From an uncultured Luminiphilus sp. (GTDB taxonomy: Bacteria > Pseudomonadota > Gammaproteobacteria > Pseudomonadales > Halieaceae): 64,000 bases of DNA. This document shows, piece by piece, positions 34,607 to 51,288 of the stretch. Numbering within the stretch: the stretch's first letter is position 1; each line of letters opens with the position of its first letter. The position numbers and the translations under genes were made by a program. The stretch spans positions 21,016-85,015 of the forward strand of contig CAJJBO010000004.1 in the NCBI GenBank assembly GCA_905182485.1, in the 5' to 3' direction. Under the pieces are notes generated by a model. It did not search any database, was not told the origin of the DNA, and saw only the letters and a program-made list of their open reading frames with translations.

Positions 34607-34700
34607 TGGCGGAAGAGGTAGGAGTCGAACCCACCAGGCACTGCTTAAGCGCCTCACTGGTTTTGAAGACCAGGCACCCCACCGGGAGCGTCACTCTTCC
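34607..34700 (-). tRNA. selC: tRNA-Sec (anticodon TCA)
   Basis: Read on the minus strand from 34700: acceptor 5' strand GGAAGAG pairs with CTCTTCC, followed by G and an encoded CCA at 34609-34607. The anticodon arm is CTGGT-CTTCAAA-ACCAG with anticodon TCA, which reads UGA. A long variable arm (GAGGCGCTTAAGCAGTGCC region) and a T-arm GTGGG-TTCGACT-CCTAC complete it. The length of 94 and the extended acceptor/variable arms are those of selenocysteine tRNA, not of a serine or suppressor tRNA. It starts 17 bases after the selB stop on the same strand. Confidence 0.96.
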
Positions 34701-34717
34701 AAAAACAATTTGATCAT

Positions 34718-36665
34718 TCATGCCCTATCTAGGAGTCGCCCCGTAAGGACAACGCGCTTATCACCATCTCGTCGGGTGACGCCAACTTGGTCAAAATACT
34801 CAAGTAAATCGACGCATGAATTACGTCCCAACCCTAGATGATCTCTCGCATCCGCTACCGAGAACATCCCTTGAGTCTCAAACAGCGTGGTCAAACTTTG
34901 AGCGAAATGATTGAGTCGATCGGACAGCAGAAAGCGCGTAGTGCTGATCTTGTGAACTCGACCATCTTTGACGGCCTCCATCAGAGCAGACTGAAGCGCT
35001 TCTCGACTAAGCTGGAGCGACTCGAGTAAATCTGACAGAGTCGGTATTTGGGCCTGATACTGACTCAGTATTGTGCTTATCAACTCCCAGTCCCTAGCTT
35101 CTTGGGCCGTCACTACCGGCTCGACGCCGGGCAAACGGACCCGACCACTAACCCGTTTTAAAAGCGAGCTATTTACCAAATCCGCTAAGGCGGCCTCCAG
35201 GAGCGACTCTTTATCCCTCCCCTGAAGTTGAGCGAGGCATTTAACTCGCAGGTGGTCAGTGGGCACTCCATCCGTATTTTGACTATCCCGATAACAGCAT
35301 TCCACCAGCTCGACTATCGTTTTTTGGCTACTAGCCCAGACATCATCAAGCACGCAAAAATCTTGCCCATTCATTCTGAAGTGATGGATACGCGTGGCTA
35401 ATTTAGCGCTGTGCAGTGCCGCCTCAAAATCCTGCGGCAGCGCATTACAAATCGACATGAAATGCGCTGTGTTTAACGCCTCTCGCCGATTAACGAGCAA
35501 CTCCGTAAGCATCTGACCGAAGGTGGGTAACCCCATGGCCTGAAGATACCCTAGCGCTTCTTTATTCTTTGCTCGTGCCGGCTCCGCTCTGGGCTCCAGC
35601 ACGATGCCTCCCGCTATGGTTGTGGACTCGCTGCTATCCCGAAGCAGAAAACGATCGCCCCAACAGCAATCTATGTCAGTTTCGACAATCACCTGTACAA
35701 GTACTGTTGCGTCTCTCACTAGCCCGGTAGCGCGAGCGGATTCCTCCAAGAGGTACAGCTTTGCAGCTTGTCGCTTAGCGCCGATATAAATTTTAACCTT
35801 TGACAAATGTTTCACAGTGAATGGCAAGCTTTCAGACACAATCAGTCTGGCGTTGAAGCGATGAGAGGCCAGAACACCACTGCCCCCGTTAAGCCAGTCG
35901 CCACGCTTAAGGTCTGACTTTTTGATACCCGTCAATTGAAGCGCGCAGCGCTGTCCAGCTCTGCCGTATTGCGTCTTGGCGTTCTGAGAGTGTATCGAGC
36001 GAACTCTTACCTTCTTATTTTCAGGTAACAGCGTCAAATGATCCCCTACCGACACGCCACCTGAGATCGAGGTGCCCGTGACGATTAATCCGCTGCCCTG
36101 TAGGTGAAAGACCCGATCAATCGATAACCGAAAATAGCCCCTCTCCGGTTTATCTTGCAAATTCTTTGCCGTTTTAACGAGAAATTGTTTAAGCTCGGTA
36201 ATCCCCGCCCCATCCGCATTGCTCACCACAAAACTCGGGGCGCTTGCCATCGGGATATGTGTTTGGATGGAAGCGAGCAGTGCTTCGGCAACGCCTGACC
36301 GCTCTGAAACGTCGATTTTGTCGATATGCGTTATCACAATGACATATTGATCCACACCCAACAAACGCAGCACTTCTAAGATGCTCAATGGTTTGAGGCA
36401 TCGGCCCCTCGTTTGCCGCAACCACGACTAACGCAAGGTCTACGCTGCACACACCGGAAATCATCGTATTGATGAAACGGTGATGACCGGGCACGTCAAT
36501 AAAGCCGATATTGAAACCCGCTTCTGCCTGCAAAAAAGCGTATCCGAGTTCTATCGATAACCCACGTTGTTTTTCCTCTTCGAGCCTATCGGTATCAACC
36601 CCAGACAACTGTTTCACCAGGGAGGTCTTGCCATGGTCGACGTGGCCTGCGGTCGCGATGATCAA
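34718..36665 (-). CDS. selB: Selenocysteine-specific elongation factor SelB (one frameshift)
   Basis: GTPase that carries Sec-tRNA to UGA codons marked by a SECIS hairpin. G1 is [10 protein letters not shown] at the N-terminus, switch region [17 protein letters not shown]3 DVPGHHRFI, and G4-like THIDKID. Domain II follows ([20 protein letters not shown]). The C-terminal winged-helix repeats that bind SECIS RNA make up the rest, to [11 protein letters not shown]. The frame changes near 36380: MPQTIEHL continues as [20 protein letters not shown]. Repaired length about 648 residues, as for other SelB. It overlaps selA by 4 bases. Confidence 0.94.
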
Positions 36666-38079
36666 AGTAACAGAGGCTCTAAATGACGTGCCTGTTCGAT
36701 AAATTTCTCGTCATCGTCAAGGCATCGTAAATCGAGCAATAGTTTACCTTCGTGCAGACGTCCAAGGACAGGACACGGTAGTCGCCTCATCGCTTCAGAC
36801 AGCCGACGTAGATCAGCATCGGTGATCGCAGTAATGGCTAACGCGTAGCTCGGAATATTTTGAACGGGCATGGCGCCACTGCCAATCTGACTGAGGCATG
36901 GCTGTGGCTCCACGGTAAAACCGTCTGGCAAGCAGCCTGCCAATTGAGGCGCCAAAAAGTACTGCTTGTTCAACGATCGTAGACTTTGTTCCTTCGTCAA
37001 GTACTGCAACGTCGGCAATTCACGCGCGAGTGTCTCCGGCTTACGATAAATTTTGAGCACCTCGGACAAAGCCGCTAGGGTCAGTTTATCTGATCGTAAA
37101 GCCCGTCGAAGCGGGTTACTTCTTATTCGATCGATAAGGTCTCGCCGTCCAGCAATAATCCCACTCTGCGGCCCACCCAATAGCTTGTCACCGCTAAACG
37201 TCACTATGTCAGCACCATTGCGAATGGCACTGGTAATCACAGGTTCTTCGGGAAGCCCGTAACATGAGAAGTCAATTAAATTGCCACTGCCCAAGTCTAC
37301 GACGAGTGGAAGATTGTGCTCATGTGCCAGCGTAGCAAGATCCGGCTCACCGACCGCTGAAGTGAAACCCTCTATCGAGTAATTACTCGTGTGGACCTTT
37401 AAAATGAGAGCGGTGCTATTTTTTACGGCGTTTAAGTAGTCTTTTAAATGCGTACGATTCGTGGTGCCCACCTCAACGAGTTTACAGCCAGACTTTTCCA
37501 TAATATCGGGAATACGAAAGGATCCACCGATCTCTACCAACTCACCTCTGGAAACCGGAATCTCTAACCCCTGCGCCAGGGTATTTAATACAAGCAATAA
37601 TGCGGCGGCATTATTATTAACCACCGTCGCCGCCTCCGTCCCCAGTAGCTCGCAAATGAGCTGCTCTGCGTGGTCGTCTCGCTCACCGCGAGTCCCACTC
37701 TGCAGATCATATTCCAAGTTGGTTGGCATAGACGCTACTTGGTTCATCGCATTAATGGCTCGGCGAGGTTAAGCTATTAGCCAAGATTGGTATGCAAAAT
37801 GGCGCACAATTGCAGCTGAAATGTACACTGAAATGATGACTGAATCCAAATAGATAACCGTAAGCTGCGGGACGATTTCCTTTTTGCTGATATCGCAGGG
37901 TAATCTCTTGTCCTAAGCGTGATTCTCTAGTGAGCAAGCTCGGATTTAACCACCAGCACAACACGGGTTCTCCCCCAGGTCGCTTCGAGGTCACCGCAAG
38001 ATTTCAGCACGGTGTCAACGGATGGCAGATCCCTGCGGATGTCTGCGCCGTTTCTATCATGCTGTTCACTCTTTCTCAT
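36662..38079 (-). CDS. selA: L-seryl-tRNA(Sec) selenium transferase SelA (5' part disrupted)
   Basis: PLP enzyme converting Ser-tRNA-Sec to Sec-tRNA-Sec. The intact frame 36662-37747 holds the core: [52 protein letters not shown], and the PLP lysine in [13 protein letters not shown]. That frame alone (361 residues) lacks the N-terminal domain. Reading upstream recovers it: from ATG 38079, [14 protein letters not shown] and WGRTRVV match the SelA N-terminus, and ILHTNLG at about 37780-37800 matches the conserved LHTNLG before the core. Between them are an in-frame TAG near 37925 and frame changes near 37755-37790. So the gene spans about 472 codons, the usual length, but is broken in this sequence. 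Confidence 0.88.
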
Positions 38080-38150: not shown

Positions 38151-41100
38151 TTACCAGGTATCGATATAGGCATGCTTTTTTTCGACGCGAGGTGGCCGTG
38201 GTGGCAGGCGCTTCAGCCCCTCGGCAATCCAAGAGCGCGTCTCGGCGGGATCAATCACATCATCAATACCACCCCCCGACGCCGCATTTACCGCCTTGGC
38301 CAGCTCGTACTGCTCCTCTACTTTTTCTTTAAATAGCTGCTGTCTTGCTTCCGCTGATTCTATCGCCTCTAGCTCTTTTCTAAAGCCCAGCTTTACGCTG
38401 CCCTCTATATTCATCGCCGCAAATTCTGCCGTTGGCCATGCGATTGTCAGTAACCCCATGAGTGAACTGCCGCCGCACATTGCCTGAATGCCTAATCCAT
38501 ACGCTTTACGCACAACGACTCCAAACAGTGGCGTCGTTATATTTGCACCTGCATTGAACATCCGTGCCGAGTGCCTAACCAGGCCTGTTGCCTCAACTTG
38601 AGGCCCAACCATTAAGCCGGGGCAGTCCATCAAACTCAAAATGGGTATGTCGAAGGCATCGCATAACTTCATAAATCGAGCGCCTTTGTCGGCGCCTGCA
38701 GAATCGATTGCACCACTCAGATGATGAGGGTTATTGGCAATAACGCCCATCGGCTTGCCCTCTATGCGAATGAATGCAGTAATAACTCCAGCACCAAATG
38801 ATTTTCTTATCTCAAGCACGGAGTCGATGTCAGCTATCGTTTTTATAATTTCACGCATGTCATAGAGTCTCACCCGATTCTCTGGAACCACATGTCGTAA
38901 ACTAATCTGGTCCGCACACTCCCACTGCTCAATTTCTCCCTGAAAGTAAGACAGGTATTTTTTAGCCACCGCGACCGCTTCTTGCTCATCCTTCACCAGT
39001 ATGTCCACTACTCCATTTGGGACTTGGGTCGACATGGGTCCCACTTCTTCCGGTGAATAAACGCCCAAACCACCGCCCTCAATCATTGCGGGTCCGCCCA
39101 TACCAATGGTTGAATTCTCAGTCGCGATAATCACATCACAACAAGCCAGTAGGACAGTATTGCCAGCAAAGCATCGCCCATGATTCACACCAATCAGTGG
39201 GACCGCTCCTGAAAGTTTTGCAAACTGAGTAAACGTCTGAACATCAAAAGAAACTGCGGGCCCCAGTGAATCATCCCCAGGTCGCCCACCACCGCCTTCA
39301 CTGAAAAGCACAAGGGGCAACCGAAATCTAAGGGCCAGCTCAAATAATCGATCTTGCTTGTAATGACCTCGGCCACCCTGCGTACCGGCAAGGACCGTGT
39401 AGTCATAATGTACCAACATGGCTGAGGAAGCTTTTTCACCAAACAGAGACGCATTAATCGTACCGGTACCACCGATCACGCCGTCGGCGGGGCTGCGTTT
39501 GCGAAGCGATTCTGAATCATGGCGTTGATGCTGACGAGCCACTACTAGAGGCCAATATTCCTTGAAAGAACCTTCATCCATCAACTCACGGATATTTTCG
39601 CGTGGCATACGCCCACCGCGTGATCTCCGTTTAGCAACCGCTTCTTGTCGATTCTCATCGAGCGTGTAAGCGTGTCGGTCGAAGCTCTCCTGTAAATCCG
39701 GCCTTATGTGGTTTACGTCCATTTGCACTTCTGGGGCTTTGTCTAGCTTGTCAAACTGAGCCTCTTCAAGATACAGGATGGACTGATTCTCAGTGACAAT
39801 ACTGCCCACGGTGAGATCGATCTGGCGAACAATCCCGTCGCAGGTTGCCCTTATCTCATGCTCCATTTTCATCGCATCGAGCACCAAAACTAACTCACCA
39901 GAGCGGACTTCCTGGCCGAGATCACAATTAAGATCGATAATGGTTCCTTGTATAGGTGACGTGATAGCAACGAGCCCTTCGTGAAGGCTTGCCACATCAA
40001 CCGGTGATTTCATACCCTCCATTGACGTCGGCGAAGACCGATGAGAGAACAGCGCCAAAGGATCATTCCCGTTTGAATCCGCCGGCAATCCAGCCCCGGC
40101 ATTTTTTGCCTGCGTTAAGTTTGATACGAAGCGATCAGGCCCTTCCCACTCTGAGGTGAGCGCTTCTATGTTTTCATCTATCCAGCGCGTGTGGATTTTC
40201 CCCTGAGCGAAGTCAGGGTGGCTGATGATATTTTTTATGAAGGACAAGTTGGTCCTAATGCCCTCCAATCGGAACTCCGACACAGCTCTGATCGACTTTC
40301 TCGCCGCATCTGCAAATTGAGCTGACTTCTCGTGAACAATGACCTTTGCGATCAGGGAATCAAAGGCAGTATTGACCTCGTAGCCCACGTAGCCATATCC
40401 GTCTGTCCGCACGCCTGGACCATTTGGCGCTTCGTATCCGGTTAAAACACCAGAGCCGGGCAAAATGGTGCCGTCAGAATTGATCGTCTCCAAGTTCACT
40501 CGCGCCTGTATGGAGAAACCGTTATTCAACGTTGCATGAGGCTCCCTCAGGCCCACGTCGGCCAAGCTAGAACCCAGTGCGATCTGTATCTGCCCTCGTA
40601 CCAAGTCGAAGCCAGTGATCTCTTCTGTGACCGTGTGCTCCACTTGCAGCCGAGCATTAGCCTCAATAAACACAAATCGCTCGTCGGGCGAATTAACATC
40701 AATGAGAAACTCGAAGGTACCGAGACTAAGATAGTGATGTTGCCGAGCAAATATCAGTGCTGCGTCAGTAATCTTTTCCCTCAAACTCGCTGATAAACCT
40801 GGTGCCGGCGCGACCTCCACAATTTTTTGGTTGCGCCGCTGCACAGAACACTCTCTATCGCCTAGGTGACTGATGTCACCCATCAGATCCCCAATGATCT
40901 GAATTTCTATATGCTTGGCCCGACTTCAAAAACTCTTCGACGTATACCTGGTCATTACCGAATGCGGCTTGAGCCTCAGATTGACATCGAGTAAAGGCTT
41001 CCTCTAGTTCAGACTCATCGTAAACAACGCGGGTCCCTCTTCCCCCGCCTCCCATAACCGCTTTTAAAATGATCGGTCCACTGGTCGCGTTGAAGAAGAC

Positions 41101-41562
41101 CCTTGCCTCATCGATCGTCACCGATCGATCACTGCCCGCTAGCACGGGCACACCTGCATCAATTGCGGCTTTTCTTGCCGCTACTTTGTCGCCAAAGAGC
41201 TCAAGATGCTCTGGTTTTGGACCAATGAACACAATATTGGCCTCTCTGCACCGCAGTGCAAAATCTGCACGCTCCGATAAAAATCCGTAGCCCGGATGAA
41301 TCGCATTGCAACCAGATTCCTTTGCCGCATGAATAATCTCGTCAATGTCCAGATAAGCTCGCGGTCCGGCACCCGGTATTAAAATCGCCTCATCCGCTAT
41401 GTTGGTGTGCAAACTAGTGCGGTCATCGGACGAAAATATACTGACCGAGCGAATACCACTATCCGCAGCCGCTCTGGCAATGCGAACGGCTATTTCCCCT
41501 CGATTGGCAATTAAAATGCCTCCCAAAGTGGCGTTAACTTCTGACTCTATCACTCTGCCCAC
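38151..41562 (-). CDS. Single-chain biotin-dependent acyl-CoA carboxylase (one frameshift)
   Basis: All carboxylase parts are in one polypeptide of about 1137 residues. Biotin carboxylase comes first (ILIANRGEIAVRIARAA, NAIHPGYGFLSE, LKAVMGGGGRGTRVV, FIEANARLQVEHTVTEEITG). The biotinyl domain is next, with the biotin Lys in LVLDAMKMEHEI near residue 570. The carboxyltransferase follows (GGRGHYKQDRLFELALRFRL, EGGGGRPGDD, CGGSSLMGLLTIAWPTAEFA). This layout is that of long-chain acyl-CoA carboxylases. The frame changes near 40918, within EEFLK..AKHIEIQIIGD. It would carboxylate an acyl-CoA made by the neighbouring CoA-transferases; the substrate is unknown. It overlaps the next upstream gene by one base. 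Confidence 0.92.
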
Positions 41563-42884
41563 TATGCCAACCTCGGTTTATTTCCAATAATCCCGTCGCT
41601 AGATAGCGACGCTATTTGGCCATTCGACAGACCTAGCATGCCGCCTAATATATCTTGGTTATGCTGACCCAGAGTGGGCGCTGAGCTACTGATTCTGATT
41701 GGGCCGTCCCCTAACCTCCATGGAGCGCTGGGATGGGGCTGCTCCCCTACAAACGCTCGGCTTAGGAATTGCATATAGCCGCGACTCACTAGATGTGGAT
41801 CCTCCATCAAATCGGCTACGTCATTCAGGATCGCTGCAGGGACACGAACCGCCTGAAGTGCTGCCATCAAGTCCTTCGCGCTCCGAGTACTCGTCCACTC
41901 GCCAATAGCGGCCTCAATTTCCATAAATTTAGCGCGCCGCTCCATAGGCTCTAAACAAGAAAAAGGCGTAAGGGCCGGCATCATATCCATTACCGACTCC
42001 CACTCCGCTTCCGATTTAATCTGGATAAGGATCCACTGATCTCGGCCTTTACAAGGGAATACTTGGTGAACAAAATAATCCGAAGCATGGTTGCCCTGAC
42101 GCGCCGGGGCATGACCGTTAACCGACTGGCAAAGTATTCCGTGTACCGCATGTGGCAGCATGCATTCAGCTTGGCTCAGATCGACAAACTGGCCGATACC
42201 CGTTTTTTGCCTGTGTCTTAAGGCAGTTAACAGCGCCGCGGTGCCATAAAGACCAGAAATCGCATCACCGAAAGCAACATGCAGCATCGTGGGCGGATCT
42301 GCTTCATCTCCTTGCAAATGAGGTAGCCCTGCAGCCTGCTCAACAGTGGATCCATAAGCCCGAAATTTTGCCCAAGGCCCCGTTCTCCCAAAGGCCGGCA
42401 TCGACAGCATGACGAGGTCCGGTTTTACTTTCTTCATGACGTGATAATCAAGATTAAGCTTTTCCAAGACACCGGTGGGATAGTTGTCGACTACTGCATC
42501 GGCACCCTTCACCAGCTTTAGCAGAAGGTCTCGCCCAGACTTAGACTCAAAGTCGATCGTTACGCCAAGTTTCTGGCGATTTACGTAAATAAAATTATGT
42601 GCTTTCTCAGCGCCGTTATTATCAATCCATTCTTGACTGGCCTCCCAGCTTCGGAACCAATCGAATCTGGTACAACTTTCAACCTTTATGACCTTGGCAC
42701 CTAGATCCGCTAGATTTCGGGTGGCGAGCGGCCCTGCCCACCCCATCGATAAATCGACAATGGTCACACCTTCAAGTGGTGCAGGTGGTGGTGATGCCTT
42801 ATCAATGCTCGAAGAGAAACCCGATTTATTCGGCCCAAGATCTTGCGAGGTGCCTTTGATCCCAGAGTGCATTATCTGCCCCAA
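41562..42884 (-). CDS. Family III CoA-transferase (CaiB/BaiF)
   Basis: CoA-transferase of 440 residues, intact. N-terminal EGVTIVDLSMGWAGPLATRN, DLGAKVIKVES and VVDNYPTGVLEKLNLDY are family signatures; the catalytic Asp is in GIGQFVDLSQAE. These enzymes move CoA from a donor thioester to a free acid. It overlaps a second CaiB gene (42826-43962) by 59 bases, so the two may form a heteromer, as known for benzylsuccinate CoA-transferase (BbsEF). Next downstream is the acyl-CoA carboxylase. Confidence 0.9.
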   Translation of the reverse strand: MGQIMHSGIKGTSQDLGPNKSGFSSSIDKASPPPAPLEGVTIVDLSMGWAGPLATRNLADLGAKVIKVESCTRFDWFRSWEASQEWIDNNGAEKAHNFIYVNRQKLGVTIDFESKSGRDLLLKLVKGADAVVDNYPTGVLEKLNLDYHVMKKVKPDLVMLSMPAFGRTGPWAKFRAYGSTVEQAAGLPHLQGDEADPPTMLHVAFGDAISGLYGTAALLTALRHRQKTGIGQFVDLSQAECMLPHAVHGILCQSVNGHAPARQGNHASDYFVHQVFPCKGRDQWILIQIKSEAEWESVMDMMPALTPFSCLEPMERRAKFMEIEAAIGEWTSTRSAKDLMAALQAVRVPAAILNDVADLMEDPHLVSRGYMQFLSRAFVGEQPHPSAPWRLGDGPIRISSSAPTLGQHNQDILGGMLGLSNGQIASLSSDGIIGNKPRLA

Positions 42885-43962
42885 GCCTAGACACCTCTCC
42901 GCCCATCTTAGGCGGCGTTTCCATTAATCTGAACGGACAGCTCGGCCCCTCAAATTGAATCCCCTCCGATGTAAATTCGCTAAAAACTTGGCGTTCTCTA
43001 TATTGATCGACAGAAAACAATTCAGCCATCGTAGGCACTCTCGCCAGTGGAATACGCTTATCCTGGCCTTGATAAAATAAATCTTCGGCACTTTTATTCG
43101 AGAGGGCCTCTAAAATTCTTGGCTCGATAATATGCGCCGCATTTAGCCTAGCCATGCTGCTCTGGTATTCAGGATTAAGGGCTAAATCAGGCAGGCCAAG
43201 CAATTCACAAAACGCCAGCCACTGGCCAGGATTCAGTACAGTAACCCCAAGCCAACCATCTTTGCATGGCCAGATACCGAGCGGATAAGTCGGGGCAAAT
43301 CGGTTGATGCCCATTCTTTGAGGCAAGGGCATGTCATTGAAACTGGCAATCGCTCCCAGTTCAGTAAGACACAGGTTTGCCTCCAGAATAGACGCATCGA
43401 GGAGAAATGCACTCGTCTTATCGTGCTGCCCAAAGAGATATCCTAGGGATCCATTGAAAGCGCTCACCCCACCTAAAATTTGCGCGTGATAACCCGTCTG
43501 AATGATCGGGGGCTCCCCCGGCTTCCCTACGCCCTGCATGAGTCCAATGAGGGCATAAATCGCTTGGTCTGTGGCCTGGTACTGGGCGTATGGACCGTTC
43601 AAGCCAAACCAGCTTATGGCGCAAACGTTGGTATTAAAATCCTCTACTGACAACGGAGATGGCAACGTATTAGGATCAAGCAATACCAAATCGGCGGCAG
43701 CGATTGCGGGATGATCTAACAACGAATTGGCCTCAACAACATGCTCTTTGTTCGCATGAAGATATCCGTGTAGAGCGCTGTCTCCGTTAGCGAGAAAGGG
43801 GCCAACTTGCCTCGTCGCAAACCCATTCTCAGGCTCAACATTCACGACCCTGGCACCATAATCGGCGTAAAGCTTTGCCGCATAACCAGTGGCAATCGTC
43901 CCCCCTATATCCACAACCAGCAGATCGTCGAAGGGCGCATTTTGGCTGGCATTCTTTTTCAT
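42826..43962 (-). CDS. Family III CoA-transferase (CaiB/BaiF), second subunit
   Basis: A 378-residue relative of the neighbouring CaiB protein, intact. LLVVDIGGTIATGYAAKLYADYGARVVNVEP is the N-terminal Rossmann-like segment; SWFGLNGPYAQYQATDQAIYALIGLMQGVG is the substrate-side region; the catalytic Asp is in AFLLDASILEANL. It is shorter than typical (about 400) and starts with a reduced N-terminus. Coupled to its partner by gene overlap. Confidence 0.88.
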   Translation of the reverse strand: MKKNASQNAPFDDLLVVDIGGTIATGYAAKLYADYGARVVNVEPENGFATRQVGPFLANGDSALHGYLHANKEHVVEANSLLDHPAIAAADLVLLDPNTLPSPLSVEDFNTNVCAISWFGLNGPYAQYQATDQAIYALIGLMQGVGKPGEPPIIQTGYHAQILGGVSAFNGSLGYLFGQHDKTSAFLLDASILEANLCLTELGAIASFNDMPLPQRMGINRFAPTYPLGIWPCKDGWLGVTVLNPGQWLAFCELLGLPDLALNPEYQSSMARLNAAHIIEPRILEALSNKSAEDLFYQGQDKRIPLARVPTMAELFSVDQYRERQVFSEFTSEGIQFEGPSCPFRLMETPPKMGGEVSRLGADNALWDQRHLARSWAE

Positions 43963-43999: not shown

Positions 44000-44779
44000 C
44001 TAGATGGCGACGGCTTGTCCATTCATTCCATTAGATTCGTCACTCGCTAGGTAAACTGCGAGATTTGCAATTTCCTGTGGCTGCAGAACTCTTCCATTAG
44101 GGATTTGCGCAACGATGCGCTCTCGAAACTCCTCTCTGGGCATGCCGCTTGCCACCATTTGGTCCTCGACCCCCCGCACTAGGTCTGTTTCGACAATCCC
44201 GGGGCAAATCGCGTTGACATTAATTCCCAGCTTCGCATTTTCGAGCGCCATGCATCTTGTGAGGCCAACAACTGCGTGCTTGGATGTATTGTATGCAGCC
44301 GAATTCATACTGCCTTGCAAACCAGCAATCGAGGCAACGTTGATCACCTTCCCTCGGCCCAGAGCCTGCATATGCCTGATCGCATATTGCGAGAGCTGAA
44401 AAACGGAACGAACGTTGACCCTCATCAAGTGCTCGAACTCCTCCAGAGAATGATCGATAAAGGGCTTGGCAATGTGCATGCCTGCGTTATTCACCAAAAC
44501 ATCCAGTTGGGAATGACGATCGACAGCAAAAGAAAAGAGATCCTCTATCTCAGAGGAAGCGCTGAGATCGGCAGCAAAAAACGACACATCCACTGCATAT
44601 TGATTAAGACGCGCCGCTGTCTCTTTAAGCGCCTTAAGGTTAGACGCACTCAGAACGATATTCGCCCCGTGTTCTGCAAACCGCTCTGCAGTTGCTAAGC
44701 CGATGCCCCTTGTGGCGCCCGTTATTAGTGCCGATCTTCCTGCAAGCCGATTGCTAACAGTGCTATTTGACGAAGGCAC
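44000..44779 (-). CDS. Short-chain dehydrogenase/reductase of the selenoprotein operon
   Basis: Classical SDR, 259 residues. SALITGATRGIGLATAERFA is the cofactor loop; VLVNNAGMHI, NVASIAGLQG with the Ser, YNTSKHAVVGLTRCMALE with Tyr/Lys, and VNAICPGIVETDLVRG follow. The C-terminus stops at NGMNGQAVAI, without the usual VDGG tail, so it is slightly short. It overlaps the GST-like gene by one base. Presumably oxidises or reduces a pathway alcohol/ketone. Confidence 0.9.
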   Translation of the reverse strand: MPSSNSTVSNRLAGRSALITGATRGIGLATAERFAEHGANIVLSASNLKALKETAARLNQYAVDVSFFAADLSASSEIEDLFSFAVDRHSQLDVLVNNAGMHIAKPFIDHSLEEFEHLMRVNVRSVFQLSQYAIRHMQALGRGKVINVASIAGLQGSMNSAAYNTSKHAVVGLTRCMALENAKLGINVNAICPGIVETDLVRGVEDQMVASGMPREEFRERIVAQIPNGRVLQPQEIANLAVYLASDESNGMNGQAVAI

Positions 44780-45892
44780 TAGAGCCAGACCTCTAAATTA
44801 TTTTTTCTACCGATATCGCGGGAGATTTTTAACTGCAACAGGATTTCCATGTCGCAGGCCTGCAGCAATTCGAACACGGATCGCTGGGCTGCTGCATCGA
44901 GGCTTTGGTATTCGTCCTGAACCCGTTTTAGTAAGTAAAAACGAAAAGGTTGCGCAGCAGCATTCATCTCCAGCCCCTGCACACTGAAGTCGCAAAACCC
45001 AAGATGGCGCTCTACCTCAGTGCCCGAGGGTACGTCAGGGTTTTCAGCCAGCCACTGGTTAATACAATCACAGGCGGCTTGAGTCTCGGGAACAAAATCG
45101 GTCGCAAAATGCTGCAATATCTCGATCAGCGTTTGAGGCACTAAGTCATCCGATAAGTATTCGGTGCTCTTATCAGCAAACTCCCCAATATCGGGCTCCG
45201 CTCGATTCATTCTCTCTACCCATCTAAACAGCCTTACTGCATGTCTTTGCATCAACGATAACGGCGTTGGATCTCTACCAAGGTGCCCATATAAGGGCGC
45301 CATCATTCCAAAATCACCGATACAAGGCTTGCCGCCAAGAAAGTACGGATAGAGAGAAAAATGTGCGTTGAGCTTTTCTAAGGTCTCGAGGTGAGTTAGC
45401 CTCAATATAGTGAGCGTTCTCGGGCGTGACTCCCCAACCCGGTAAGACATTACTTCTTATAAATTCCATGCGGTCTTTCGCCGCCTCCCGATCACCGAGG
45501 TAAATAGAGGCGAACTGAAAAGGCAAAAAATCACTGTCTTCTTCATCATGATTAAAACGGTAATGCATGCATGGTCGCAACATGCCCTCTGCGCCAATAA
45601 CGTCTAGCAAAAGACTCACTATGCGCTGCCTTGGCGAGACCGGTGCGTGGCTAGATCCGTTTAAACTTTCGAAATGATCGATGATCGCTACCCCGTCCCG
45701 GATAACGTCACCATTGGCGAATTCGACCGTTGGAACCCCGCGTCTCCCGCCAGCCTTGGGCAAGACTATGTTGTAATAATGCTCAGAGGCATGCGGCTCC
45801 TCGCGATAGTCAATGCGTGACTTAATCAGGTAGCTGCGAGCGCGGCCCGTATAGAGAGAAAATGCTCCGCCATAAAGCGTAATTGGCTTCAT
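44779..45892 (-). CDS. Glutathione S-transferase-like protein (one frameshift)
   Basis: Thioredoxin-fold N-domain (ITLYGGAFSLYTGRARSYLI, GVPTVEFANGDVIRDGVAII), where the cis-Pro is in RGVPTVE, and an all-helical C-domain (YPYFLGGKPCIGDFGMMAPL). The frame changes near 45400: HYIEA then LTHLETLEKLNAHFS. Repaired length about 370, longer than a canonical GST (about 200-230), like the related protein at 51856-52896. It may conjugate or transfer a substrate to glutathione; the catalytic residue is not certain. 58 bases after the UGSC partner gene. Confidence 0.82.
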
Positions 45893-45950: not shown

Positions 45951-47042
45951 TCACAGTTCACCACGCTGACTTAATCCTGGGATAGCGCAAAAAAAATCGC
46001 TTTCCACTTTGACACTGACAGCGCGATTCTGGTGACCCGCACCTCCCCAGTTTGGCATCACCATAGAGTAAAGACCCACTCCACCAGCGACCATGACAAG
46101 AATGTTTTGGGGACTTTTAAACGCGTTGTAAGTACCGTCAGGGTCGTCCTTGAAAGCCTTACCAAATTCACCTGCGTAGCGTATGTGCTGCGCATTCGGA
46201 AACTGGGTGAGCTCCCATAACCTTTGCTGAATGCTCTCTCTTGTAAAATTTGATCGAGCCAAAACCGACGCATGTTTTGGCCCTAAACAAACAAGTGCCA
46301 TACCCGACGCGAAAATTGCGTTATTGGTAGCAAGATTAGCGAGGCCGACTGATAGGACATACAACAATTTCTCCGCGTCTTCAGGGTCATCTGCATTATC
46401 GCTGTAGAGCACAGAGTGCGGTGCTTCGCAGCCCAATAACGTCACCACACTATCTGATTCGTCGTAACCCAAGCTGACGTGCAGTGGCGGAAAAGGTGAT
46501 TGCTCTTCTGCCTCGGCTAGGCAATACGTGAATTTGCCAGGATGGCCATGAATCGCCATATCAGAAATCCCGGGCCTGCCGCCTCCAATATTGATTAAGC
46601 ACAGACGTAACGCCCTGCCGATACTGGCATTAGCTCTATGCCCAGGCCCTAAAGCGCCATACCCAGAGGCCACAGGGCCACAGGTTTCTCGTGCGGGACC
46701 ATTAACGATGATCAGCGGTGCTGTACAGTGAGTCGTAGCTTGGAGCTCGGAAAGGTCAAACTCGGGTGAGGCTGCCGCTTTTACAGCGGCGACTACCAAA
46801 GGCATATAATCCGACTTACAACCCGCCATAACAGCTGCTGTAGCCACCTTCTCGACCGTCGCATTGCCCATAGCTGGCCCTAATTCACCGAGCAGCATAT
46901 CCCCGTCCATACCGCTTGCCAGAACACACTGATTCACCCGTTCAGGAGTAGGGATGACGACCGGCAGTCCATCAGTGCAACCCAGTTCGTGCAGTTGCTC
47001 TAGCGCTTGCTCCTCATTTTCTGCTTCCAACAAATCACTCAT
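45951..47042 (-). CDS. UGSC-partner protein, unknown function
   Basis: About 363 residues, intact. Characteristic segments are CTDGLPVVIPTPERVN, GNATVEKVATAAVMAGCKSD, LQATTHCTAPLIIVNGPA and NASIGRALRLCLINIGGGRPG. I recognise this set as the family usually encoded beside UGSC-motif proteins; no reaction is established to my knowledge. Several Cys are present (ATTHCTAP, MAGCKSD). The ATG at 47042 is chosen: it overlaps the end of the selenoprotein gene by 8 bases, indicating coupled translation and probably a two-protein complex. No signal peptide. Confidence 0.8.
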   Translation of the reverse strand: MSDLLEAENEEQALEQLHELGCTDGLPVVIPTPERVNQCVLASGMDGDMLLGELGPAMGNATVEKVATAAVMAGCKSDYMPLVVAAVKAAASPEFDLSELQATTHCTAPLIIVNGPARETCGPVASGYGALGPGHRANASIGRALRLCLINIGGGRPGISDMAIHGHPGKFTYCLAEAEEQSPFPPLHVSLGYDESDSVVTLLGCEAPHSVLYSDNADDPEDAEKLLYVLSVGLANLATNNAIFASGMALVCLGPKHASVLARSNFTRESIQQRLWELTQFPNAQHIRYAGEFGKAFKDDPDGTYNAFKSPQNILVMVAGGVGLYSMVMPNWGGAGHQNRAVSVKVESDFFCAIPGLSQRGEL

Positions 47043-47568
47043 TAACAAAACTGTCTAATATTCCCTCGATAACATCATCGGCGATCAATTTGATTTTCGC
47101 TTCACCCAACCCTGCTACCGGATGCGGCAACATCACCCGCGGTAGCTCCGGCATGCCAAGCGAGTTGGCCACGAATTGCCCTTGATCCCAAAAGTCCTCG
47201 GTAATCAGCGCTACCACTGGCATGTTTCGTTTTGCAATGTTGTATCCGTCACGCACGGTGCCGGTAGTACAACTCCCTCAATGCCCATAGGCGGCGATCG
47301 CGACATCACCTGCAGCCACCATTTCGTCTAGCATCTCGTCGCTCGCGGCGACTCCCGCATTGTGCTTGTTCCACAGTCGCGTCTGAATATCAGGTAGTCG
47401 CGCTTTTAGCGCGGCAGCTACTTTTTCGAGAAACAACTGCGAATCGGGGAAACCATTCGCCAGTAGAGATACAGAAATACCTGCGCCGTCGTTGAGACGA
47501 ATGTCAGCTGACAAATCATACTTTTCTTGTGGCTGAGAAGACGCACCCCGAGGATCCAAAAATTTCAT
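47035..47568 (-). CDS. UGSC-motif selenoprotein (in-frame TGA = selenocysteine)
   Basis: One gene of 177 codons that ordinary ORF callers split in two. The first part ends GDVAIAAYGH, then TGA at 47280-47278, then GSCTTGTVRDGYNIAKRNMP without a frame change. Sec97-Gly-Ser-Cys is the redox motif that names the UGSC family, known from marine bacteria and from Cys-containing homologues. The downstream part, VVALITEDFWDQGQ, GMPELPRVMLPHPVAGLG, is the conserved UGSC domain. Start ATG 47568 has GGGAG 9 bases upstream. It is first in an operon that ends with selA, selB and selC. The Sec/Cys pair suggests a thiol-selenol redox or reductive role; the reaction is unknown. Confidence 0.94.
47239..47280 (-). 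promoter_or_regulatory. Sec codon and SECIS-like hairpin
   Basis: TGA is at 47280-47278. Starting five bases after it, GTTGTA (47273-47268) pairs perfectly with TACAAC (47244-47239). Inside, CCG (47264-47262) pairs with CGG (47248-47246), leaving a G/U-containing apical loop about 20 bases after the UGA. Position and size fit a bacterial SECIS recognised by SelB. Confidence 0.8.
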
Positions 47569-47720: not shown

Positions 47721-48830
47721 TTAGCGCGCACAGTGATAGGCAAACGCAGCGATCGACGAGAGTGTGTCGCGCGTCAACTCCGGTATGGCATCGGGCATCG
47801 CTATCTCTGGAACATGATGGGCGCCGTTGACTATTTGGGAGGTCGCCTCGACGCCAGCGGCACGCAACCTCTGTGCAAACACCACACCCTCGTCGCGAAT
47901 CAGGTCCAACTCATAATTGCGAATAATATGAGGGGGCAACCCATTAAGCAGGTCACTTGGCGCGAATAGCGGGTTACACAAGGGATTATCTTTAAATGCT
48001 TGCTCCGGATCATAGACCAGCCTCATCGCCCTCACCGTTGCATGATCACCCATCAGTCCGAGGTTCTCATGCCAAGACAATAAACCCTCAGGCGGCGCGT
48101 CGTAGAAGCCATACAACATCGGCGCCATTGCGTAGACGCCGTCAACCGCGTCCCCCCAACCCTCAGAGCTAGCTTTCAACGCCGTACTGATGGCAAGATT
48201 GCCACCTCCAGATTCGCCAATGACAATTATCGAAGATATCTGGAGCTCGTCTCTGTTCTCATGCACCCATCGTACTGCCGCTGCGCAATCATCCAATCCC
48301 GCAGGAAACGGCTGGTGTCCCTCAGATAAGCCCTCATTCCGAAACTCCACCCCAATCACCACCGCATTCAGTTCGGCCAGCGATTTCCGCCAACGCACAT
48401 TAGAGGCATTCCTTGCTGTATCGAATATCATCCCCCCTCCATGCAAATGCACAATGCAAGGCATCCGAAAATGCGCATCCTTAGGTCGGTCGATCAGCAA
48501 GTCGATTTTATGGCTGCCGTGGCCACGAATAGGTAGCTCGTAAGATTCAATGCTCTCGAAATCAGGCATGGTCCTCTCTATGACCTCGCTCATCGAGGCC
48601 ATTAAGGAATGCATGTACATCGTAAAGTCGACGGCGTCCTCGTAGGTCATGTTGCCGTGCACATTCGGTTGCTGTGCAGGGAATGTCATAGACGCCTCAA
48701 TCAGCGCAGTAGCGATCCTAGGGTCCAGCCTTGGATCGTCTAACAGCGTGACTTCAGGATTCCCGAGCTTGCCAGAAAGTGTTATCCCCAGCGCTTCTAG
48801 ACTCGTCTTATTAATCTCATCGCTCGGCAT
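47721..48830 (-). CDS. Alpha/beta hydrolase (HSL-like esterase)
   Basis: Carboxylesterase of 369 residues, intact. Oxyanion motif CIVHLHGGGMIFD, nucleophile in VIGESGGGNLAIS, and a late His in VNGAHHVPEIA. No signal peptide, so cytoplasmic. It is the second HSL-type esterase of the block (the other is at 33562). It lies directly upstream of the selenoprotein operon with a 150-base promoter gap between. Confidence 0.88.
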   Translation of the reverse strand: MPSDEINKTSLEALGITLSGKLGNPEVTLLDDPRLDPRIATALIEASMTFPAQQPNVHGNMTYEDAVDFTMYMHSLMASMSEVIERTMPDFESIESYELPIRGHGSHKIDLLIDRPKDAHFRMPCIVHLHGGGMIFDTARNASNVRWRKSLAELNAVVIGVEFRNEGLSEGHQPFPAGLDDCAAAVRWVHENRDELQISSIIVIGESGGGNLAISTALKASSEGWGDAVDGVYAMAPMLYGFYDAPPEGLLSWHENLGLMGDHATVRAMRLVYDPEQAFKDNPLCNPLFAPSDLLNGLPPHIIRNYELDLIRDEGVVFAQRLRAAGVEATSQIVNGAHHVPEIAMPDAIPELTRDTLSSIAAFAYHCAR

Positions 48831-49007: not shown

Positions 49008-51231
49008 CTACCGAGAACCAAAGAATCGGGTCAGCTCAAAACCGACTTGCCGGGGCATGGCCCAAAATCCCTGCCGCCCATAGGTCGTTTGCAACCCTTG
49101 CATACCCGTAATGTGCTCTTCATCAGTCAGGTTGGTGACGTAAAACCGAGCCGCCCACTGCCGCTCTGCACTTTCCCAGTTAGCATTGAAATTCACTATG
49201 GTATAAGCCTCTTGGGAATCTTCTTTCAAACCGAACTCTCTAAAATACACTCTTGAGCGATATGAGGCGTCCAAGCTCAGCTTCACCCCGCCACCTGAGC
49301 TGAGAGGAATGTCATAAGCCGCCCCCAGTATCAGACTCGTTTCAGGGGCGTTATTAAGTGGGTTGCCTTCGTTCTGATAGGGCTCGCCGGGACGCAATCC
49401 GTCGCTGTTTAAAAACGAACCATATTCAGAATCTAACAACGTTACAGCCGCATTAATTAACCATCGATCCGAAATGGCGGTGTTAATTTCTAGCTCGGCA
49501 CCCATAATCTCAGCATCGCCAGCATTCGTAATCGGTACTACATGATTTAACACTTGCAGCACCTGAAAATCGGAATAATCGTAGTTGAAGATCGCGGCTC
49601 TTAGTGTCGTCTGACCATTCCCAAAAGCAGCTTTGTAGCCGATCTCTGTCGCTTCTATTGTCTCGGGTTCCCATGGGGGGTTACAGTCGCCACTGTTAGT
49701 GCCGCCGGACTTAAATCCCTCAGAGTAAGAAACGTAGGTCATGCCGCTTTCGCCCACGTCGTACTCTACTGATGCTCGAACCGTGTTGGAGGAATCCTCC
49801 CACTCCTGCACATATAGATCAGGCCAATCTGGGGCGCAATTGGTGATGAACGGGATGAACCCCGCAGCATCCGAATTAACGCCAAACCCGCCCACATGCT
49901 CACTTCGCTTCTCCTCTTTGGTATGACGCATGCCAAAGCCTATTCGCAGGTCTTCTGACACTGAGTAGGTCACATCCGCAAAAACACCGGTCGTCTCATT
50001 ATCATAAGTCGGTCTCTGATTTTCAACGTAAGGGGTGTAAGGAAACGGCAATGGGAAAGGCAAAGCCTGAACTGCAAAATCGATAATAAAATTATCGCTT
50101 CTCTCATCATCCATATAAAAGCCACCGACAAGCCAATCTAAATTCCCTGCCGTGCCCGAAATGTTAATCTCCTGAGAGAAGGACTTGTTTTCACCTACGG
50201 TAGATCTCTGGAGGATCCCAAGGCTTGATGAGTCGGCCGCAAAGTCCTCTGCGTTTTTCCACTCTTGCTGAGCAGTAATCGACTTGATCGAAAAATTGTC
50301 GGAGTGCCAGTTTAGTGTCAGGCTGTATAAGTCGAGCTCACGATCAGTATTGACCGGCCCTGGCATATAGACCTTGTGCGGCTCCTCGGTATATAAAATC
50401 GGTACTCCAGCCGGGTCATTAGAATAATCTAATGCAGGCAACCCCGTCATGACACCATAGTCAAAGTGCTCATCGGTCATGGCCCAATGGGTCCATCGGC
50501 CACTCTGCTCACTATGAGCGAGCATTATTTCCGCATCAAACTTATCAGACAACTCCGCCGTCACGATGACACGAGCATTCGATTTTTCGCCCAGCATCAG
50601 GTCATTGTCCCCCGGCTCAAGGTTTTCAACCCAACCCTCATTGGCATCTAAATGACTCGCTGCAATTCTAAAACCAATGCGGTCAGTAATTGGGCCGCTG
50701 ACGACAATCTCAGCTGTCGTCTGCTCATACTCCGCAAAACCTACCTTCAAATATCCGTACAACTCATCAGTGGGTGCAGCAGCAATAAAATTAACCACAC
50801 CGCCATTTGCATTGCGACCATAGAGCGTCCCCTGCGGGCCTCTGAGGACTTCGACGCGAGCCAGGTCCAACAAGCTAACTTGTGAGCTTGCGTCGCTGGG
50901 TTGTACGACACCATTGATGCTCGTGAGCACACCGGGCTGCTCAAGAAACGAACCCACACCTCTAATCGAGATATTACGATTGCCATAATTCTCACCAAAA
51001 TGCAGGCTTGGCACTGCATATTGAATCTGATTCATGTCTGCTGAGCCCCCTCGCTGAGAGGTCCTCTGCGCTCAGCGTCGTAATGGCGCTTGGGGTCTCC
51101 ATAACGGTCGATTCACGCTTGAGGCCAGTCACAACGATCTCCTCGAGAGCCGCTCCTAACGCAACCTGCATGAAGGACAGGCTGGCTCCGCCAACAAGAA
51201 TGTTGCACAAGTTAGTCTTAACGCTTCTCAT
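49008..51231 (-). CDS. TonB-dependent receptor (one frameshift)
   Basis: Outer-membrane receptor of about 740 residues. The N-terminus (start 51231) has a signal peptide (NLCNILVGGASLSFMQVALG), the TonB box EEIVVTG, and SAITTLSAEDLSARG. At a run of five G near 51048-51052 the frame changes to SADMNQIQYAVPSLHFG. The plug continues with ISIRGVGSF, DLARVEVLRGPQGTLYGRNA, and the barrel ends in PRQVGFELTRFFGSR. This is the subgroup common in sphingomonads and marine gammaproteobacteria for xenobiotics, plant compounds or steroids, not siderophore-specific. Its promoter shares an operator-like motif with the selenoprotein operon, so it may import the pathway substrate. Confidence 0.9.
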
Positions 51232-51288
51232 GTTATTACCCTCTAATAGCACACTGACACTCTAGTTATCGTTATTTAGCTACATATA

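What the first reader, a model, noticed from the sequence alone, without database searches (positions are those of the whole stretch)
47035..47568. Unannotatable-by-default selenoprotein: UGSC motif with in-frame TGA
Two separate open frames (47281-47568 and 47035-47277) are one gene joined by TGA in the context GH-U-GSC-TTGTVRDG. U-G-S-C is the defining motif of the UGSC selenoprotein family, reported from marine bacterial metagenomes, with no established reaction. The flanking sequence is conserved on both sides, the frame is unbroken and a SECIS-like hairpin follows. Standard gene callers would list two hypotheticals.
Basis: partly seen in the sequence, partly recalled or inferred. Interest (0 to 1): 0.93.

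Follow-up and report, generated by a model that had tools for sequence, protein, structure and literature searches.

The report
UGSC selenoenzyme beside its decoding genes
A bacterial gene that standard gene finders cut in two is one frame of the known but uncharacterised UGSC family, whose inner UGA codon is predicted to be read as selenocysteine; it lies in the same gene row as selenocysteine-decoding genes and beside a constant partner gene, with which it likely forms a distant cousin of glycine reductase.

Summary
In detail: one 177-residue frame (47568-47035, minus strand) is interrupted only by TGA at codon 97 and matches Pfam's UGSC family across it (141 bits, cut-off 25). All 80 kept relatives have TGA there; five database homologues have Cys. 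selA, selB and tRNA-Sec lie 9-13 kb downstream on the same strand, selD elsewhere. selB is in 45 of 48 UGSC genomes searched but in 13 of 363 genomes of the window's class without UGSC.
The hairpin is not unusually stable (z -0.10), yet is the strongest evidence: of 35 conserved degenerate codons only 103-107, 16-30 nt after the UGA, are frozen to one codon in 73 dereplicated genes. In sister subfamilies its pairing is kept in 34 of 35 Sec genes and 1 of 4 Cys genes.
Beyond the finding: a partner gene follows UGSC in 79 of 79 loci or is fused to it. UGSC aligns, Sec on Sec, with the Sec domain of glycine reductase GrdB (hhalign 95.6%), suggesting, untested, C-X bond cleavage. The family is known; the GrdB kinship and frozen SECIS appear new.

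The parts
47035..47568 (-). UGSC-family (seleno)protein gene, 177 residues, TGA at codon 97
47278..47280 (-). in-frame TGA, predicted selenocysteine codon
47246..47264 (-). hairpin CCG-g-CAC-cgugc-GUG-a-CGG starting 13 nt after the TGA, predicted apical SECIS; codons 103-107 frozen in 73 of 73 dereplicated relatives
45951..47042 (-). partner gene, 363 residues, start overlaps the UGSC stop by 8 nt; no Pfam or NCBIfam family; homologue downstream of UGSC in 79 of 79 loci
44779..45892 (-). glutathione S-transferase-like gene, in two frames here, one ORF in relatives
44000..44779 (-). short-chain dehydrogenase
42826..43962 (-). family III CoA-transferase (CaiB type)
41562..42884 (-). family III CoA-transferase (CaiB type)
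38151..41562 (-). acyl-CoA carboxylase (biotin carboxylase, biotinyl and carboxyl-transferase domains), in two frames here
36662..37747 (-). selA (479 bits to TIGR00474; first about 100 residues not in this ORF)
34718..36665 (-). selB, in two overlapping frames (155 and 235 bits to TIGR00475)
34608..34701 (-). selC, tRNA-Sec, anticodon TCA (71.6 bits to RF01852)
47721..48830 (-). alpha/beta hydrolase (hormone-sensitive-lipase type) upstream, kept near UGSC in 12 of the 80 loci
49008..51035 (-). TonB-dependent receptor, kept near UGSC in 12 of the 80 loci

Best explanation
This is one gene of the UGSC family whose in-frame UGA is predicted to encode selenocysteine, and with the gene behind it it likely makes a two-part enzyme whose selenocysteine would attack a carbon-heteroatom bond much as glycine reductase does. 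How it would work, step by step. (1) SelA, SelB, tRNA-Sec (same gene row) and SelD (elsewhere in the genome) decode UGA97; SelB would recognise the hairpin that starts 13 nt downstream [genes shown; decoding predicted, about 0.96]. (2) The UGSC protein folds as an alternating beta-alpha (Rossmann-like) domain with Sec97 just before a helix and Cys100 three residues on [AlphaFold model, Sec modelled as Cys]. (3) UGSC and the partner act as one enzyme: neighbours in nearly every locus, often translationally overlapping, fused in some genomes [inferred, about 0.85]. (4) The UGSC domain is homologous to the Sec domain of GrdB [profile comparison, about 0.8]. (5) Hence Sec97 would act as a nucleophile on a substrate held by the partner, and Cys100 would resolve it as a selenenyl-sulphide that is re-reduced by thiols [inferred, about 0.5]. 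(6) In this bacterium it would serve the breakdown of an imported hydrophobic ester or acid: TonB receptor, esterase, UGSC-partner, GST, dehydrogenase, CoA-transferases, carboxylase [context only; substrate unknown, about 0.35].
For: Sec: profile through the TGA; TGA in 80 of 80 kept relatives and in 14 of 15 family matches in 369 genomes of the window's class; Cys at the site in five homologues and in 22 of the 30 fetched uninterrupted Acidimicrobiia-class genes (8 not resolved). Machinery: tRNA-Sec, selA, selB in the window, selD on another contig; selB in 45 of 48 UGSC genomes, and in one draw in 5 of 6 UGSC genomes vs 13 of 363 others. SECIS: codons 103-107 are the only 5 of 35 conserved degenerate positions frozen to one codon (73 dereplicated relatives, among them records titled Actinomycetota, Acidimicrobiia, Myxococcota and Syntrophales); in the SVHD subfamilies codon-103 and codon-105 third bases pair in 34 of 35 Sec genes (C-G 20, G-C 11, G-U 3) but 1 of 4 Cys genes (35 of 39 Sec and 4 of 12 Cys genes read fit the pattern). 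Partner: 79 of 79, 43 of 44, fused. GrdB: hhalign score 65.1, 95.6%, 1.1e-8, Sec on Sec; best of 60 column-shuffles 21.4, with UGSCT masked still 43.1; best of 30 unrelated families 24.9. Chemistry of GrdB and PrdB: Se-C bond cleavage (PMC10298544, passages); a GrdB-like protein proposed to cleave C-F (PMC10838667, passages).
Against: No experiment. The hairpin is not energetically unusual. Kinship with PrdB, which should also hold, is near noise (score 25.4, 7.9%). The partner is not recognisably GrdE, GrdB or PrdB (0.2-0.5%). Structure searches with the UGSC model give only generic alpha/beta matches, and no GrdB chain is in the PDB by sequence. Three of 48 UGSC genomes show no selB (they are small, 1.4-1.8 Mb) and G135 has a Sec-type UGSC without selB. 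One of 35 Sec genes breaks the hairpin pair and one of 4 Cys genes keeps it. Gene context differs between lineages, so the substrate guess is weak. The genome is a 69.6%-complete draft with several split genes.
Confidence: 0.6

Rival explanations
1. UGSC is a true selenoprotein but an ordinary thiol-disulphide or peroxide-reducing enzyme: UxxC is a redox pair, and the partner or a nearby GST or thioredoxin system feeds it electrons.
For: UxxC motif, with Sec-or-Cys 97 and Cys100 invariant in 45 aligned sequences; [quoted passage not shown] GST gene in the cluster; a gene that by sequence looks like thioredoxin reductase near UGSC in 15 loci (named by eye).
Against: The confident model (pLDDT 94.9) has strictly alternating strands and helices, not a thioredoxin pattern; profile kinship is with GrdB; gene company in the window is catabolic and one genome has nine copies, unlike a housekeeping antioxidant enzyme.
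Confidence: 0.25
2. The gene is decoded with Sec, but UGSC is a non-redox transferase or lyase: the selenolate forms a covalent adduct that the partner hands on without net reduction (for example to CoA or glutathione).
For: In glycine reductase a selenoether-bound intermediate is handed on within the complex (PMC10298544, passages); CoA-transferases and a GST lie in the cluster.
Against: Cys100 is invariant, which fits a resolving thiol; no transferase signature in UGSC or partner.
Confidence: 0.12
3. The TGA is a stop or a sequencing error and the gene is a pseudogene in this draft genome.
For: Several neighbours (GST, selB, carboxylase) are split by frame changes in this draft.
Against: 80 of 80 kept relatives share the TGA; frame open on both sides; synonymous freezing downstream; Sec machinery present.
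Confidence: 0.02
4. The TGA is recoded as another amino acid (Trp or similar), as in code 4.
For: One database protein reads W here (P0002).
Against: UGSC's own frame ends at a TGA inside the start of the partner gene; tRNA-Sec with TCA anticodon is present; Cys, not Trp, is the substitute residue in uninterrupted relatives read.
Confidence: 0.01

Closest known systems
UGSC family (Pfam PF24696; UGSC-containing selenoproteins of the Global Ocean Sampling survey)
   Same: profile match through the Sec codon at 141 bits; UGSC motif; Cys forms exist; fusion to a second domain is reported in print (PMC2398784, passages)
   Different: below NCBI's equivalog cut-off for NF041046 (100 vs 125); here a separate partner gene and selA-selB-selC in the same gene row
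GrdB, glycine/sarcosine/betaine reductase selenoprotein B (PF07355)
   Same: Sec domain aligns over 140 columns, Sec on Sec, UxxC motif; a second protein is encoded next door (GrdE there, PF09338 in 5 of 5 tested; the partner here)
   Different: UGSC lacks GrdB's first 200-odd residues; partner is not recognisable as GrdE; PF07355 does not appear for any of 45 UGSC members at E up to 1
PrdB, D-proline reductase selenoprotein
   Same: small UxxC selenoprotein; the PrdB-like genes found here are clearly related to GrdB (99%)
   Different: direct profile link to UGSC near noise (7.9%); the PrdB-like genes are all below the TIGR04483 cut-off
FarB/FarE fluoroacetate reductase (GrdB-like, C-F cleavage proposed)
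   Same: shows that the GrdB kind is thought to act on bonds other than C-N (PMC10838667, passages)
   Different: anaerobe; sequences not compared here

Membership tests
UGSC family (PF24696) | profile score above the curated cut-off | tested here: met
   141.4 bits, cut-off 25
UGSC family (PF24696) | UGSC or CGSC motif at the active site | tested here: met
   GH-U-GSC; Sec or Cys at 97 and Cys at 100 invariant in 45 sequences
NCBIfam NF041046 UGSC_fam (equivalog) | score above NCBI's cut-off | tested here: not met
   100.1 bits, cut-off 125; so not filed under this equivalog
Bacterial selenoprotein | in-frame TGA with Sec or Cys in homologues | tested here: met
Bacterial selenoprotein | selA, selB, selC and selD in the genome | tested here: met
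   selB and selD are split by frame changes in this draft
Bacterial selenoprotein | SECIS hairpin just downstream of the UGA | tested here: met
   frozen codons 103-107 and Sec-dependent pairing in sister subfamilies; folding energy alone inconclusive
Bacterial selenoprotein | Sec present in the protein | not testable with these tools
   needs 75Se labelling or mass spectrometry
GrdB (PF07355) | match to the GRDB profile | tested here: not met
   no PF07355 match listed at E up to 1 among 45 UGSC members; the profile has 347 positions and GrdB's Sec lies at 345-358
GrdB (PF07355) | homologous Sec domain with Sec in register | tested here: met
   hhalign 95.6%, controls far lower
GrdB (PF07355) | GrdE-type partner | tested here: not met
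   partner vs GrdE 0.2%
Thioredoxin-fold oxidoreductase | thioredoxin fold | tested here: inconclusive
   model shows alternating beta-alpha order and no thioredoxin chain is in the rows listed, but lists cannot exclude a family

The most novel reading that the evidence does not exclude
UGSC and its partner are a new branch of the glycine/proline reductase kind of selenoenzyme, working in free-living bacteria such as SAR92, K189A, OM182 and Acidimicrobiia: the stripped-down GrdB Sec domain, paired with an unrelated substrate-binding protein, reductively breaks carbon-heteroatom bonds in hydrophobic organic matter. In SAR92-like bacteria the trait, enzyme plus selABC decoding genes, is carried in one gene row.
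Probability: 0.4. Interest if true: 0.87.

Novelty: new member of a known kind. Interest (0 to 1): 0.62.

Why it matters
UGSC was among the major selenoprotein families of the ocean survey (255 sequences; PMC2398784, passages), yet no reaction is assigned in the passages I read. Placing it beside GrdB gives a chemical hypothesis, the constant partner gives the second subunit to express, and natural fusions give a single construct. The frozen hairpin gives a clean way to tell Sec from Cys forms in genomes, where gene callers now cut the protein in two, and a natural test of what SelB reads. A gene row holding a selenoenzyme and its decoding genes bears on how the Sec trait could spread.

Full report
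What is there. On the minus strand, window 47568-47035 reads as one frame of 177 residues broken only by TGA at codon 97, in the context AYGH-U-GSC-TTGTVRDG. A normal ORF list gives two pieces. Pfam's UGSC profile matches residues 3-173, straight across the TGA, at 141 bits (cut-off 25); NCBI's UGSC equivalog matches at 100 bits, under its cut-off of 125. The genome (2.17 Mb, 42 contigs, 69.6% complete) shows one UGSC match.

The TGA is conserved. A scan of one genome for each of 84,980 species found 189 relatives, of which the best 80 were kept. The query had X at the Sec site and the only pattern used was LANGFPDS, so TGA was not selected for. All 80 have TGA at the homologous codon (79 read, L058). 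In 369 genomes of the window's class, 6 have the family, with 15 matches: 14 with one TGA, one with none. In 247 genomes of the class of L110 (an Acidimicrobiia record), 89 have it; of 150 listed matches 119 have one TGA and 31 none (more matches were not listed). Of those 31, 30 were fetched: 22 show Cys at the site (12, 9, L210), 8 were not resolved. Among 42 database homologues, 34 cover only the first 53-54% of the query, and five that cross the site have Cys.

The host can decode it. The window holds tRNA-Sec (34608-34701), selB (34718-36665, in two overlapping frames) and selA (36662-37747), all on the strand of UGSC. selD is on contig C23; its reading there is broken by frame changes, with a GAGCGC stretch that I take for a Cys-type active site, followed by what looks like selU (names by eye). 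Between UGSC and selA lie the partner, GST, SDR, two CoA-transferases and an acyl-CoA carboxylase, with small or no gaps except about 0.4 kb before the selA ORF. A like order is found in SAR92 and Porticoccaceae loci, five of which reach selA before the locus ends (L055, L056, L057, L066, L067). Two further loci (L117, titled OM182, and L124) have a selB piece at their edge, up to 10 kb upstream; genome G332 has selB 0.25 kb from a UGSC gene and G314 about 8 kb. I submitted 50 of the 80 loci; 48 genomes could be searched (one locus not held, two in one genome): 45 have selB at E 1e-60 or better. In the class draw selB is in 18 of 369, that is 5 of 6 with UGSC and 13 of 363 without; one of the five, G337, has only a Cys form of UGSC.

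The SECIS. Folding energy says nothing (z -0.10). Comparison says a great deal. After dropping near-copies, 73 of 81 sequences remained. Of 35 codon positions with a conserved, degenerate amino acid in the stretch compared, exactly five use one codon in all: 103-107, GGC ACC GTG CGT GAC; the next most biased is at 85%. They are contiguous and lie within the hairpin CCG-g-CAC-cgugc-GUG-a-CGG that starts 13 nt after the UGA; the window has the same letters. The 73 include records titled Actinomycetota, Acidimicrobiia, Myxococcota and Syntrophales beside gammaproteobacteria. Other UGSC subfamilies have other hairpins at the same place. In the SVHD subfamilies codon 103 is TGC or TGG: with TGC the valine codon 105 is GTG (20 of 20), with TGG it is GTC or GTT (14 of 15), so the stem pair is kept in 34 of 35 Sec genes, but in 1 of 4 Cys genes. 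The Cys group is small and genes are related, but the valine change is synonymous and is hard to explain at the protein level.

The partner. The next gene (363 residues) overlaps the UGSC stop by 8 nt. A homologue lies within 1.5 kb downstream on the same strand in 79 of 79 loci with room to tell (of 80). Of 44 further loci from genome searches, 43 hold a homologue near UGSC, behind it, ahead of it or in the same chain (L169 is the miss). Fusions keep the order UGSC-partner. The GOS authors reported a UGSC/Unknown_1 fusion; I did not see their sequence and cannot say that it is the same domain. The partner has 7,954 homologues among 8,000 scored candidates but no Pfam or NCBIfam name.

Kinship with glycine reductase. 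AlphaFold gives UGSC at mean pLDDT 94.9 as strictly alternating strands and helices, with residue 97 just before a helix. Structure searches return many generic alpha/beta folds. GrdB genes from 9 of 247 genomes read, for example, ILTSTUGTCTRCGA with PVVH and IP(H/Y)PLG after the Sec. A profile comparison of 45 UGSC with 12 GrdB sequences aligns 140 columns, Sec on Sec, at score 65.1, probability 95.6%. Controls: 60 column-shuffled GrdB alignments reach at most 21.4; with the UGSCT motif masked on both sides the score is 43.1, 75%; 30 unrelated families from the neighbourhoods reach at most 24.9. PrdB-like against GrdB, a known kinship, scores 129. Against this, UGSC with PrdB-like proteins scores only 25.4, and the partner shows no link to GrdE, GrdB or PrdB (GrdE confirmed by PF09338 in 5 of the 7 sequences used, the 5 tested). 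Pfam's GRDB profile ends about where the Sec lies (347 positions; Sec at 345-358), which may be why profile searches have not shown this (inference).

In print. I read passages, not whole texts. UGSC is one of the major ocean selenoprotein families, said to have a likely Trx-like fold (PMC2398784); a 2026 review lists it beside Trx-like-fold proteins whose functions remain largely uncharacterised, and describes GrdB and PrdB apart (PMC13188914). A library search for UGSC names with GrdB or glycine reductase gave 40 papers with two or more terms, 12 listed; three of those listed hold a UGSC name with both others (PMC13188914, PMC2398784, PMC9312934), and PMC5029168 has both names in one table. 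In the UGSC passages I read no kinship is stated. Subscription papers were mostly not searchable, so the kinship may be in print elsewhere.

Verdict. A real, predicted selenoprotein gene, a member of a known family. The new parts, as far as I could search, are the Sec-dependent frozen hairpin, the constant partner in separate and fused forms, selABC in the same gene row, and the likely common origin with the GrdB Sec domain. The reaction and substrate remain inferred.

Noticed in passing
window 44779-45892, 34718-36665, 38151-41562, 49008-51252; L010: GST, selB, carboxylase, probably the TonB receptor, and selD are each split by a frame change in this draft genome, while relatives have single ORFs for the GST and carboxylase and mostly for selB: probably sequence or assembly errors, not tested.
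   Followed up: partly
G332 (L033-L040): One genome of the window's class has nine UGSC matches, all with TGA, all in frames of 546-649 residues fused to a partner domain, with hairpins other than the window's in those folded.
   Followed up: partly
G000:C41:3052-3135 (L002): A second Rfam tRNA-Sec match just over the cut-off (48.7 bits against 47), not looked at further.
   Followed up: no
L077, L079, L080, L088, L090 and others: In 18 loci a gene that looks like class I fumarase (about 506 aa) lies behind the partner, and 15 loci have a thioredoxin-reductase-like gene on the other strand (names by eye).
   Followed up: no
L136-L147: The Pfam GRDB profile stops about at the Sec codon, so the rest of the Sec domain lies outside the model.
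   Followed up: partly
L157-L164: PrdB-like genes in 7 of 369 genomes of the window's class occur in both Sec (4) and Cys (4) forms, all below the TIGR04483 cut-off; two genomes (G091, G314) have them together with UGSC.
   Followed up: no
P0002: A database protein reads W at the Sec site, probably TGA translated with another code.
   Followed up: no
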